Below, in pieces: positions 35,597-40,182 of a stretch of 64,000 bases of DNA. The position numbers were made by a program, and so were the translations under genes. The notes under the pieces are model-generated. The model saw only the letters and a list, made by a program, of their open reading frames with translations. It ran no database searches and had not been told where the DNA came from. This DNA comes from Cepaea nemoralis. Its lineage: Eukaryota; Mollusca; Gastropoda; Stylommatophora; Helicidae. Positions within the stretch are counted from its first letter, which is position 1; every line of letters starts with the position of its first letter. Location of the stretch: contig JACEFZ010005600.1 in NCBI GenBank assembly GCA_014155875.1, forward strand, positions 449,501 to 513,500, given 5' to 3'.

Positions 35597-37083
35597 GCCT
35601 AGATGGTATCAGTAATAGAATTCTTCGTTGTACTGCACCAGTCATTAGCGAGTCCTTAACGTTCATATATAACCAGTGCCTGACCAAAAACTACTTTCCA
35701 TCTGCATTTAAAATTGCTAAAGTGTTTCCGCTAATTAAAAATGGCTCAATCGATAATAGTGTTTTGGGTAATTATAGACCTATTTCCTTACTATCGTCGC
35801 TATCAAAACCACTAGAAAAACACATTCATAATATAACGTTACACCATTTAATTAACAATGATCTAATAATTAACAGTCAATCTGGGTTTCGACCTAAATA
35901 TTCTTGCCATAGTGCTCTAACAAAAATGACCGATAACTGGCACTTAAACATCAACAACGGTAGAATTTGTGGAGCGGTGTTTGTAGACTTTAAAAAAGCT
36001 TTTGATATGGTAGATCACGATATTTTAATTAGAAAACTAAAGCAAATGAAGACAAGCACCAACATGGTGAACATAATTACGTCATTTCTATCCGACAGGC
36101 AACAAGTCGTGTCCTTCAACAACTGTCTATCAAGACCCACACAGCTTAATATTGGTGTGCCTCAGGGCTCAATACTAGGTCCGCTGCTTTTTGCAGTTTA
36201 TATTAATGATCTTCCTTTATATATCAATACAACTTGTGATCTATTTGCAGACGACTGTACTATATATACTAGTCAAGAAAACCGTAGTGAATTAGAGAAT
36301 TCTTTACAAAAGGAACTTGATAATCTTACTAGATGGAGCAATGAAACCCGCATGCAAATTAACATCGACAAAACCAAATCCATGCTAATAACGACCAGAC
36401 AAAAACTACAGACACTAGCCATAACTGGATCACCGCTCGAACTCCGCATGGGCACGTTACCTATAGTTAATGTGACTGAACATAAAACACTAGGGATTTT
36501 AATAGACAGCCATTTGAACTGGAGCTCTCGTGTTCACGCTCTTACCAAGAAAATAGCACAAAAAGTTTACCAACTTGCTAAAATTCAGCAATTCCTGGAC
36601 GAAAGCACACGAAAAATATTCTACACATGCTATATCCAATCACATCTCGATTACTGTTCCACAGTTTGGGATGGTTGCCCTAAATCTAATTTAAAACGAC
36701 TATGTTCTCTACAAAACCGAGCTATTCGTCTGGTTTCTGGCATAAAGCACGTTGAAAGTAATAATTTGTATAGTCATCTAAGACTTCTACCACTACAAAA
36801 GCTCTTCCTTTTCAACAAAGCCAAATTAGTGAATAAAATTATATCTCAAAATACCCCAGAGTATCTTCTGCCGCTGATTCAATCTAATGCAATGAACAGC
36901 AAGCGCCTAAATTTGTTACATGTCTCAAAGCCTAGATTGGACCTATACAAAACATGTTTCGCCTATTCTGGTGCTCACTTATGGAATGATCTGCCTCCAG
37001 ATCTGAAAACTCCAATGAGTCCCTACACATTTAACCGAAAACTCTTTCAATACTTAATCCATACCGACTATATGCCACCATAA
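35597..37083 (+). CDS. LINE-B reverse transcriptase (5'-truncated, otherwise open)
   Basis: The frame is open from the insertion boundary to TAA at 37,081-37,083; the first Met is at 35,722. It contains 'NYRPISLLSSLSKP', motif A 'VFVDFKKAFDMVDHD', motif B 'GVPQGSILGPLLFAVYINDL', 'LFADDCTIY', and the C-terminal 'DYCSTVWDGC', 'LWNDLPPDLKT' and 'TFNRKLFQYL' texts common to CR1/jockey-like LINEs. The endonuclease and ORF1 are missing through 5' truncation, the usual outcome of target-primed reverse transcription. All RT catalytic residues seen are intact, but without promoter and endonuclease it cannot move on its own. Confidence 0.9.
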
Positions 37084-38230
37084 TTCATTTACTGGTATAA
37101 TTGTTCAGTATAATTGTTCATTATAATTGTTTAACTATAATTGTTCACTATATATGTGTGTGCGTGTGGGAGCGAGCGAGAGAGAGAGAGAGAGAGAGAG
37201 AGAGAGAGAGAGAGAGAGAGAGAAAGTGGGTGTCAGAGAGAGGGAGAGAGTGAATGCGTGTGTGCGCACGTGCATGCGTGTGTGTGGAGAGAGTGATTGA
37301 GCGAGAAATGGTGGGGGAATGTGTCAGTGCATGCATTCGTACGTGTATGTGTGAGAGTGAGTGAGGGAATGTAGGCGTGCGTGCGTTCATGTGCATGCGT
37401 TCATGTGTATGTGTATGTTTGAGAGAGTGTGATTGAGAGAGTGAGTGTGTGTGTGTGTGTGTGAAGGATTGTGTGTTAGAGAGTTAGACAGTGGGAGAGT
37501 TGATGTGTTAGTGTATGTGTGTGAGCGCGTGCATGCGTGTGAGTGTGTGTATATGAAAGAATACAGAGAGAGAGAGAGAGAGAGAGAGAGAGAGAGAGAG
37601 AGAGAGAGAGAGAGAGAGAGAGAGCTGAGCAGATGCATGTCATGTAACACGCATGTTATGTAACACGCGAATCCATATGTTTGTGTATTCTCATCTGTCA
37701 TATTAGCAGTTAAATACCATTTGATTTTATCATGCATAATATAAACTAATGTTCATTACTGTAGTTTGAGTGAGAGAGTCAGTGAGTGTGAATGAGAGAC
37801 AGAACGAGTGAGCGTGAGAGTGAATGAGTGAGCGGGAGAGTGAATGAGTGAGCGGGAGAGTGAATGAGTGAACGGGAAAGTGAATGAGTGAGCGGGAGAG
37901 TGAATGAGCGGGAGAGTGAATGCGTGAGAGTGAATGAATGAGCGGAAGAGTGAATGTGTGAGCGTGAGAGTGAGTGTGTGTGTGTGTGTGTGTGTGTGTG
38001 TGAGAGAGAGAGAGAGAGAGAGAGAGAGAGAGAGAGAGAGAGAGAGAGAGAGAGAGAGAGAGAGAGAGAGCATCACTATTTTTACGTCACATACATTTTA
38101 TGTACACATTTTTCTCCATGTTTAACATTTTTATGAGACTGCTCATGACAAGTGTCAGTGTATATGTGTGAGTAAAGTGTGGGAGTTTCTTCATACTAGT
38201 TTCAATACTAACGTGAGACATTTTATATGT
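37084..38230 (+). repeat. GA/GT microsatellite block of LINE-B 3' UTR
   Basis: After the stop comes four-fold 'taattgttcactata' text, then (GA)n at about 37,169-37,222, 37,566-37,623 and 38,002-38,070 and (GT)n at 37,974-38,001, with gagtgaatgagcggga repeats at 37,800-37,960. Unique spacers at 37,625-37,790 and 38,071-38,230 separate them. The first spacer aligns with the minus copy. Confidence 0.87.
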
Positions 38231-39990
38231 GTCTAGATGTGAGGAAGTGTGAGTGTATGTGGAGGATGTGTGTGAGTGTGGGGATATGTGTGGGTAGTGG
38301 TGTGTGGGTGGGGGTGTGGGTGGGGTATGCGTTTGGATGGGTTGGGGTGTGTGGGTTTTGATGGGTAGTGGTATTTGTGGGTGTTGGTGGGATGTGTGGA
38401 TGGATGTGTGGGGGTGAAAGTAGGGGTGTTGGAATGGGTGTGGGGGATGTGTGTATGGGTGGAGGATATGTGTATGGGACGGATGCAGGGGATGTGTGTT
38501 TATGTGGGTGGAGATGTGTGGACGGTTTGAGGAAGTATGTGTAGGAGGCGGGGTTGTGTGGGTAGGGGATTGTGTTGGGTGGATTGGGGATGCAAGGGCG
38601 GGTGGGGAGAAGTGTATGGTGTGTGGGTTTGAGATATGTGTGCGGTGTGTTGGTGGGGGATGTGTGAATGATGTGTGGGTGGAGGGTATGTTTGTGGTGG
38701 TATGGGTGGAGGATAGTGTGTGGTGTGGGGGATGTGTGTGATGGGTGCGGGGAATGTGCGTATGGGTGGGGTATATGTATGGGTGAGTAGGGGATTGTGG
38801 TGGTTGGGGGAAGTATGTGGGGGAGTGTTGGTGGGAGATGTGTGTGTTTGGATGGGGAATGTGTGGGTGGGGGTGTGTGAGTGGCTTAGGGATGTGTAAG
38901 TGGGTGAGGGAGTTGTATGTGTCGGGGTGGGATGTGTGAGTGGGTGGAGGATGTGTGTGGGGTAGGGGTATTGTGATCGAGAGATGTTTGGTTGGGGGTG
39001 GGGGTGTGTGGGTGCGTAGTGGAGGATGTATGCGTGAGTGAGTGTGTGTTGGTGGACGGGTAGGGAATGCGTGTGTGGGTGGGGAGAGGTGTGTGGTGTG
39101 TTGGTTGGGAATATTGTGTGGGTGAGGTATGTGTGTGTGGGTGGGGGATTTTTGTGGTGTGTGAGTGGGGGTATGTGGGGTGGATGGGTAAGGGTATCTG
39201 TGTGGGTGTGGGTGGGAATATTGTGTGATATCTGGGTGGGGGATATGTGTGTGGTATGTAAGTGGGGATGTGTTGGTGAGGGATATGTGTGTGTGTGTGG
39301 TGCGTGGGTTGGGAATAGTGCATGGTAGGTGTATGTGATGTGCGGGTGGGGGATTGTGTGGTGGGGGATTAGGTTAAGGCATGTGTGGGTGGGTGGAAGT
39401 TGTATGTGTGGGTGGTGGGGTTTGTGTTAGTGGATTGGGATGTATGGGTGGTTAGGGAGATGTGTGGGGTGGAGGTAGGGACATGTCAGTTGGTGGGGAT
39501 GTGTGTGTATGGTTTGGGAATGTGTGAGTGGATGTGCGATGTGTGGGTTGGTGGGGGATTGTGTGCATGGGTGGGGAATATGTTGTCAATGGAGATGTGG
39601 TTGGGGGATGGGTGGTTTGAGGTGTTGTTAGGGAGAGGATGTGTGGGGTACTATGTGTATGTGGATGGGCGTGGGATGTGTGGGTTGGTGGGGGAATGTT
39701 TGTGGGTGGCGAGTGTGTTTTGATTGGGGGATCAGGGGAGGGCAGTGTGTGTGTGGGTGGGGGAATGTTTGTGGGTGGCGAGTGTGTTTTGGTTGGGGGA
39801 TCAGGTGAGGGCAGTGTGTGTGGGTGGGGGATGTGCGGGAGGGGGATGGATCGGTTGGTGGGGTATGTATGTGTCCCTTGGTGTGCGTGTATGTCGGTAG
39901 GTGGGGGTGTGTATGTGTCCCTTGGTGCGCGTGTGTGTGGGTAGGTGGGGGTGTTGTGTGGGTGGGGTGATGTATGGATGGGTGGGAGAT
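38230..39990 (+). repeat. TGTGGGTGGGGG-rich satellite of LINE-B 3' UTR
   Basis: About 1.75 kb of loosely periodic tgtgtgggtgggggat text without a strict period. One longer duplication is visible: 39,713-39,755 and 39,771-39,812 share gggtggcgagtgtgtttt and the following bases. The G-runs could form G-quadruplexes in RNA; that is inference. Confidence 0.85.
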
Positions 39991-40182
39991 GGGCTTCATA
40001 ACATGGTAATTAGCCTTGTTTATGTTTACAACATTCATTTCACAATGTTTATTTTATCCTCCTATGTAAATGTATAATGCTCTTGATGAACGAAAGACGA
40101 GTGATTGAAAGGGCCGAATGTAAGACGGGCCTGCGCGCCCAATTTGTGACCCTAATAAAGTTGATTTGATTTGATTTGATTT
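39991..40182 (+). repeat. LINE-B conserved 3' tail with (TTGAT)n end
   Basis: Contains cttgtttatgtttacaacattc, gggccgaatgtaagacgggc and cctgcgcgcccaatttgtgaccc, then aataaag and ttgat repeats. Every block except the final microsatellite has a counterpart in the minus copy. The sequence aataaa near the end could act as a polyadenylation signal. Confidence 0.85.

What the first reader, a model, noticed from the sequence alone, without database searches (positions are those of the whole stretch)
35597..40182. A LINE that carries about 2.9 kb of simple-sequence DNA as its 3' UTR
Between the RT stop (37,083) and the conserved 3' tail lies 2.9 kb of GA/GT/TG-rich sequence. A 7-bp target-site duplication (gagaaga) encloses RT, simple-sequence block and tail together, so the block was in the RNA that was reverse-transcribed. 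The minus copy has the same order over 3 kb. An RNA of this kind could form G-quadruplexes or R-loops and would spread satellite seeds around the genome.
Basis: partly seen in the sequence, partly recalled or inferred. Interest (0 to 1): 0.87.

Follow-up and report, generated by a model that had tools for sequence, protein, structure and literature searches.

The report
LINE with kilobase-scale G-rich 3' UTR
A young family of jumping genes in a large animal genome carries about 2.6-3.1 kb of G-rich and GA-rich simple-sequence DNA behind its reverse transcriptase gene and copies it along when it jumps, which makes the effects of such RNA testable.

Summary
The tail query found 681 candidate places in the window's genome (3.47 Gb); 40 were scored, all 98-100% identical. 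I fetched the 39 others. G-rich sequence lies directly upstream of the tail in 39 of 39. Thirteen of 40 (window copy included) carry the RT end, 2.63-3.06 kb before the tail; none joins the tail directly. From the RT side, 352 candidates gave 40 scored; 10 of these were read 400 bp past the stop and 10 of 10 enter the GA/TG block. The minus copy belongs to a second subfamily of similar layout. Between the two, RT is 87-89% and the tail 85-88% identical, but the 1.7-kb G-block aligns no better than block-shuffled controls while length and composition (51-52% G, 2.5-2.8% C) agree. 5' truncation is not more frequent inside the G-block. Seven of 39 insertions sit at (CT)n runs, none at (GA)n. CR1-like LINE (name partly recalled), new variant of a known kind; the block's function is not shown.

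The parts
35589..35595 (+). left copy of the GAGAAGA target-site duplication
   Evidence: exact match to 40183-40189; chance about 0.45%
35596..37083 (+). 5'-truncated ORF2 with reverse transcriptase, ending in TAA
   Evidence: RVT_1 2e-35; 60% identity to P0001 from its residue 139
37084..37629 (+). 3' UTR part 1: AT-rich start, then GA/TG simple sequence
   Evidence: of 10 RT-selected copies 7 continue with this sequence (80-93% identical) and 3 with the minus copy's version
37630..37766 (+). island 1, non-repetitive
   Evidence: homologous to the minus copy; found upstream of the tail in 18 of 39 other loci (in one, L021, it belongs to an outer older copy)
37767..38070 (+). 3' UTR part 2: GAAT/GA array including a (GA)n run of about 68 bp
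38071..38240 (+). island 2, non-repetitive
   Evidence: found upstream of the tail in 23 of 39 loci (in L018 and L021 it belongs to another, older copy); 79% match in L018; not detected in the minus copy
38241..39997 (+). G-block: degenerate TGTGGGTGGGGGA-like repeats, 52% G, 2.8% C on the sense strand (boundaries set by eye)
   Evidence: G-rich, C-poor sequence of at least 150 bp directly upstream of the tail in 39 of 39 fetched loci
39998..40182 (+). conserved 3' tail with AATAAA (40154-40159) and (TTGAT)n end
   Evidence: 40 of 40 scored genome copies at 98-100% over 173 bp
40183..40189 (+). right copy of the target-site duplication
13788..13975 (-). 3' tail of the minus copy, ending in (TTTG)n
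13976..17057 (-). 3' UTR block of the minus copy (G-block 13976-15665; GA/TG part with island 1 at 15797-15935)
   Evidence: three other genome copies match its start at 94% over 255-267 of the 400 bp read after their RT stop
17058..17760 (-). RT 3' part of the minus copy
   Evidence: 87% identical to the plus copy
21735..22650 (-). RT 5' part of the minus copy (5' limit approximate)
   Evidence: 88.6% identical to the plus copy; P0001 match to 22646
17761..21734 (+). another endonuclease-RT LINE nested inside the minus copy
   Evidence: Exo_endo_phos and RVT_1

Best explanation
This is a young CR1-like (Jockey-superfamily) LINE. One nearly full-length copy is about 8.5 kb, with ORF1, ORF2 (endonuclease and RT) and a 3' UTR of 2.6-3.1 kb between RT stop and tail: a GA/TG part with two unique islands and a G-block of mostly 1.65-1.75 kb (up to 2.2 kb). 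The tail of about 185 bp ends in AATAAAG-(TTGAT)n. The enzyme recognises the tail, starts target-primed reverse transcription there (inferred), and copies back through the G-block, the GA part and the ORFs, stopping at variable points (5' truncation, shown). The simple sequence is therefore inherited as part of the RNA. Its exact sequence turns over between subfamilies (most likely by slippage and small tandem duplications, inferred) while G-richness, C-poverty and length stay similar. I think a sense-strand G-rich RNA stretch is at least tolerated and probably kept by weak selection on composition; that last step is inferred.
For: Tail copies: 40 of 40 scored at 98-100%. G-rich sequence directly upstream in 39 of 39 fetched; RT end present in 12 of 39 plus the window copy, RT stop to tail 2,628-3,057 bp and 2,914 bp; no direct join. 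RT-selected: 10 of 10 enter the block. L027 with ORF1, endonuclease homology and RT, beside an (ATCT)n array. Within the family the G-block is inherited faithfully: mean ungapped identity 97.3% over 55 pairs, RT end 98.7% over 21 pairs, tail 99.7% over 55 pairs (the tail is biased upward by the tail query). 5' ends are scattered; 0.27 per kb in tail plus G-block, 0.52 in the GA part, 0.59 in RT. L015 shows an inverted 5' segment as in twin priming. Composition kept with sequence turnover: G-blocks of the plus and minus copies 59.7% identical over 1.6 kb against 59.0-61.3% for five block-shuffled controls; G 52% and 51%, C 2.8% and 2.5%, 1,757 and 1,690 bp.
Against: Composition could be kept without selection, because internal duplication copies the existing composition. 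Only two G-block sequence classes were seen, in three copies or lineages, and the older copy in L018 aligns with the minus copy at 86.5%, so turnover happened at least once, not demonstrably often. Some similarity between the classes remains: local alignment exceeds Markov shuffles (order 2, z 5.0; order 4, z 2.9; 0 of 60 each), pairwise alignment of 1.5 kb gave 60.6-63.4% in the six rows printed, without a control, and the L018 older block against the plus copy (63.4%) lies just above its six shuffles (59.0-62.1%). TSDs are mostly short or absent. ORF2 of L027 is broken. No transcript was seen. The difference in 5'-end rate is not significant (p 0.06).
Confidence: 0.85

Rival explanations
1. 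The block is a passive passenger: RT slippage and recombination on a simple-sequence seed inside the 3' UTR, with no effect on the element. Composition persists because duplications copy it. (This rival concerns only the last, inferred step of the best explanation.)
For: (GA)n runs vary between copies, 22-68 bp in four copies checked; the GA part and G-block carry indels, 1.27 and 0.78 gap events per 100 bp against 0 in the RT end; RTE LINEs of moths are reported to make SSR families by slippage during retrotransposition (PMC2887409, abstract read).
Against: C stays at 2-3% in the plus copy, the minus copy and the older copy of L018 although the two classes hardly align and RT differs by about 12%; unconstrained T-to-C change should have raised it (inference).
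Confidence: 0.45
2. The GA part of the RNA helps bring the complex to (CT)n targets by RNA-DNA or triplex pairing.
For: 3' flank with a (CT) run of 10 or more in 7 of 39 independent insertions against 6 of 4,516 background 40-mers, Fisher p 3e-12; (GA) runs in 0 of 39; three of four copies checked carry three (GA)n runs of 32-68 nt, the fourth (L049) two of 22-24 nt; L024 sits in a CT-rich minisatellite and L027 beside (ATCT)n.
Against: The endonuclease may prefer such sites by itself. Some (CT)n flanks may be antisense GA parts of older copies. The background came from 13 of the same loci, not the whole genome. There GA runs were commoner (27 of 4,516) than CT runs, yet even so only about 0.2 GA flanks are expected in 39, so the zero for GA alone says little. 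Outside the arrays there is no clear pyrimidine bias: 22 of 39 flanks are over half pyrimidine. 32 of 39 insertions are elsewhere.
Confidence: 0.15
3. The block is not element sequence but local simple sequence or an assembly artefact at two loci.
For: Simple sequence is prone to misassembly; the window carries an exact 19-bp match to a library-adapter-like sequence at 1354-1372, so the assembly may not be free of artefacts.
Against: 39 of 39 fetched tail loci and 10 of 10 RT-selected copies have it, with different flanks except for one pair (flanks of the 10 RT-selected copies were not compared).
Confidence: 0.01

Closest known systems
CR1/L2-group LINEs (Jockey superfamily)
   Same: endonuclease plus RT ORF2; ORF1 with a GDSL-like stretch; short tandem 3' end instead of poly(A); heavy 5' truncation; short or no TSD (family traits recalled)
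   Different: 3' UTR of 2.6-3.1 kb made mostly of simple sequence. I recall none like it. PMC11203168 (gastropod non-LTR families) and PMC10294476 (bivalve transposons), passages read, have no occurrence of 'UTR' or 'untranslated' in their main text, so they do not settle it.
HeT-A, TART and TAHRE of Drosophila
   Same: LINEs with unusually long 3' UTR and strand-biased composition (PMC5537684, passages)
   Different: there the G-rich motifs lie on the non-coding strand (PMC10088271, passages); here the sense strand is G-rich; a telomeric location of the copies here was not tested
Human L1 3' UTR G-quadruplex tract
   Same: sense-strand quadruplex motifs located in the 3' UTR (PMC4407331, passages); ligand stabilisation reported to stimulate retrotransposition (Sahakyan 2017, seen only as cited in PMC8074290)
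   Different: here about 1.7 kb of G-rich sequence, and no poly(A)
RTE elements of Lepidoptera
   Same: LINE 3' UTR that consists of simple repeats and seeds microsatellites (PMC2887409, abstract)
   Different: their 3' UTR is extremely short; here it is kilobases long and internal to a unique tail
Satellites derived from LINE 3' UTRs (CR1 in chicken, L1 in cetaceans)
   Same: LINE 3' UTR as a source of tandem repeats (table of PMC9659126, passages)
   Different: those satellites are listed as derived from element copies; here the repeats are already inside the mobile unit

Membership tests
CR1-like LINE | reverse transcriptase of non-LTR type | tested here: met
   RVT_1 2e-35; best solved relatives of the L027 RT are R2 and, weaker, LINE-1 ORF2p
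CR1-like LINE | apurinic-type endonuclease upstream of RT in ORF2 | tested here: met
   by homology: L027 3710-4741 matches P0015 residues 11-357 (41%), P0015 carrying PF03372; a direct Pfam scan of the two L027 pieces gave no endonuclease hit
CR1-like LINE | ORF1 with an esterase (SGNH/GDSL) domain | tested here: inconclusive
   PF13472 E 1.9e-4, 22.4 bits against a cut-off of 32.9
CR1-like LINE | short tandem 3' end, not poly(A) | tested here: met
   (ATTTG) 3-6 units in 40 copies
CR1-like LINE | placement within the CR1 clade of an RT tree | not tested
   no labelled reference set was at hand
Telomeric HeT-A-like element | G-rich strand antisense to the ORFs | tested here: not met
   sense strand 52% G, 2.8% C in the G-block
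L1 | poly(A) tail | tested here: not met
   (TTGAT)n tail
Strictly microsatellite-targeted LINE | most insertions in one repeat | tested here: not met
   7 of 39 at (CT)n

The most novel reading that the evidence does not exclude
The long simple-sequence 3' UTR works as an addressing and protection device. Its GA tracts pair with (CT)n microsatellites and bias where the complex lands (7 flanks with CT runs, none with GA runs). Its G-block keeps a fixed G-rich, C-poor composition through near-complete sequence replacement because the RNA's structure or protein binding, not its sequence, is selected.
Probability: 0.12. Interest if true: 0.85.

Novelty: new variant of a known kind. Interest (0 to 1): 0.58.

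Why it matters
It shows an apparently recently active LINE (inferred from 98-100% identical tails) whose enzyme copies about 1.7 kb of quadruplex-prone sequence without detectable extra truncation. That bears on the open question whether 3' UTR quadruplexes block or help target-primed reverse transcription (raised for L1 in PMC4407331, passages). It is also a direct route by which kilobases of GA/G-rich simple sequence are dispersed, and it offers a (CT)n insertion preference that can be tested.

Tried and rejected
Rejected: direct RT-tail copies (none among those seen). Rejected: 5262 as the 5' end of L027; it was only the limit of the window copy used as reference, so its row says nothing about a TSD. 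Rejected: a statistically supported fold of the 3' tail (z 0.23; 1 covarying pair of 38 in 3 sequences). For the minus copy the only 7-bp matches (two places) lie beyond its likely 5' end, so no TSD was assigned.

Led nowhere: viral contigs by protein (9 pattern matches, no relative) and by tail pattern (0). Genome contigs gave four distant loci, the best (L001) 46% identical and ending 166 bp past the match. A genome-wide query for direct RT-tail joins and one for the minus-family tail did not complete.
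Full report
WHAT IS THERE. The plus copy runs 35596-40182: a 5'-truncated RT (Pfam RVT_1), 2,914 bp of mostly simple sequence, and a 185-bp tail with AATAAA and (TTGAT)n. A 7-bp repeat encloses it. The minus copy (tail 13788-13975, RT to about 22650) has the same order with 3,082 bp between stop and tail and is split by another LINE at 17761-21734. RT identity between the two copies is 87-89%. A unique island inside the GA part is homologous between them; island 2 was not detected in the minus copy. The 3' tails end in different repeats, (TTGAT)n and (TTTG)n, and the two copies have different 5' ends and flanks, so they are separate insertions.

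GENOME-WIDE TEST FROM THE TAIL. The own genome is 3.47 Gb in 26,579 contigs. The tail query gave 681 candidates; 40 were scored, all 98-100% identical over 173 bp. I fetched the 39 others: 20 with up to 10 kb, of which two were cut by contig ends, and 19 with 3.6-3.7 kb. L013 and L016 share a flank and are one insertion, so there are 39 independent insertions with the window copy. G-rich, C-poor sequence (at least 150 bp) lies directly upstream of the tail in 39 of 39. Island 2 is found upstream in 23 of 39, island 1 in 18 of 39, the RT end in 12 of 39; in L018 (island 2) and L021 (both islands) the island belongs to another, older copy beside or around the insertion. RT stop to tail is 2,628-3,057 bp in the 12 and 2,914 bp in the window copy. 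No copy joins RT to tail; only the 13 with an RT end could show it. L021 is an insertion into the G-block of another copy; the 3' flank of L045 is G-block sequence too.

GENOME-WIDE TEST FROM THE RT. The RT-end query gave 352 candidates; 40 were scored at 90-100%. 10 of 10 run into a GA/TG block and 0 of 10 show the tail in that stretch. Seven match the plus copy's spacer; L058-L060, the three at 90%, match the minus copy's spacer at 94% over 255-267 of the 400 bp. So the minus copy belongs to a multi-copy second subfamily; its layout beyond 400 bp is known from the window copy only. Whether the 10 are all independent insertions was not checked.

NEARLY FULL-LENGTH COPY. L027: 5' UTR from about 1244, ORF1 reading frame of 608 aa with a sub-threshold GDSL-like match, ORF2 with endonuclease homology and RT to 6748 (broken by a stop and by an (ATA)n stretch), 3' UTR and tail to about 9737, beside an (ATCT)n array. 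This fits a CR1-like LINE; the clade name rests on recalled traits, not on a tree.

HOW FAITHFULLY THE BLOCK IS COPIED. In 11 young copies, mean pairwise ungapped identity is 98.7% for the RT end (21 pairs), 96.6% for the GA part before island 1 (21), 97.9% for island 1 (55), 97.3% for 1.5 kb of G-block (55) and 99.7% for the tail (55; the tail was the search query). Gap events per 100 bp are 0, 1.27, 0.47, 0.78 and 0.27. So the block is inherited as sequence and not regrown at each site.

SEQUENCE TURNOVER WITH KEPT COMPOSITION. Between the two subfamilies RT is about 88% and the tail 85-88% identical, but 1.6 kb of the G-blocks aligns at 59.7%, no better than 20-bp-block-shuffled controls (59.0-61.3%, five shuffles; reversed 56.3%). 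Against this reading: local alignment against Markov shuffles shows excess (z 5.0 at order 2, z 2.9 at order 4, 0 of 60 shuffles each), so short shared stretches remain. Lengths (1,757 and 1,690 bp), G (52% and 51%) and C (2.8% and 2.5%) are alike. An older copy in L018 has a 1,166-bp G-block (52% G, 2.1% C) that is 86.5% identical to the minus copy's (six shuffles 61.4-64.5%) but only 63.4% to the plus copy's (six shuffles 59.0-62.1%). There are thus two sequence classes with one composition.

DOES THE G-BLOCK STOP THE ENZYME? G4Hunter mean is 1.15-1.27, with 3-8 non-overlapping G3+ motifs per 1.6 kb in 12 sequences. Yet 5' ends occur at 0.27 per kb in tail plus G-block (16 ends), 0.52 in the GA part (9) and 0.59 in RT (7); p is 0.06 for G-block against the rest, in the direction of fewer ends (end positions entered by hand; six of 39 copies censored). 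There is no sign of a roadblock.

WHERE IT INSERTS. A (CT) run of 10 or more lies within 40 bp after the tail in 7 of 39 insertions, against 6 of 4,516 background 40-mers from upstream flanks in 13 of the same loci and 0 of 782 in the window (Fisher p 3e-12 for the former). (GA) runs: 0 of 39, with 27 of 4,516 in the background, so the zero alone is expected. At least 80% pyrimidine: 6 of 39 flanks; at least 80% purine: 0 of 39; over half pyrimidine: 22 of 39. The RNA carries (GA)n tracts complementary to the CT strand. Endonuclease preference is the simpler reading; RNA-guided landing is the bold one. Confounders: some (CT)n may be antisense GA parts of older copies, and the background is local.

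KNOWN OR NEW. Long strand-biased 3' UTRs are known in HeT-A (G-rich strand antisense; PMC5537684 and PMC10088271, passages), quadruplex motifs in the L1 3' UTR (PMC4407331, passages), SSR-bearing short 3' UTRs in moth RTEs (PMC2887409, abstract), and satellites from LINE 3' UTRs (PMC9659126, passages). A G-quadruplex placed in the 3' UTR of Ty1 lowered its retrotransposition in yeast (PMC8074290, passages), which is a caution against assuming a benefit. I found no description of a LINE with kilobases of sense G-rich 3' UTR in the listings; these cover open-licence papers only, and none of the searches was exhaustive. Verdict: a real feature and a new variant of a known kind; its function is open.

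Mended: background loci (13, not 14), island counts that include older copies, the length range of the G-block, the extent of the 94% match, the GA background, and the share of copies able to show a direct join.

Noticed in passing
29267-33274 (minus), direct repeats at 27781 and 34760: Ty3-like LTR element whose pol reading frame has integrase before RT and RNase H (repeats), the reverse of the usual Ty3 order; recalled as Gmr1-like. Described only.
   Followed up: no
   Followed up: partly
47639-48112, 55929-56309, 56840-61241: arrays of a 15-19-bp CCAACCAACAACCAG(CCAG) repeat, three separate places.
   Followed up: no
22830-23310: about 470 bp with inverted ends (GTTCTCAACC / GGTTGAGAAC) flanked by TGTAAGCCA repeats, seen by eye; hAT-like non-autonomous element by recall.
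   Followed up: no
17761-21735 and 49400-52666: two copies of a second endonuclease-RT LINE family, one nested in the minus copy (only the first was scanned with Pfam).
   Followed up: no
L014, L018, L031, L032, L034, L039, L049: insertions at (CT)n microsatellites, CT in the element's sense orientation.
   Followed up: partly
L023 5046-9708: a 94%-identical RT part joins a 98.6%-identical part with an overlapping stretch, suggesting a chimera of two subfamilies.
   Followed up: no
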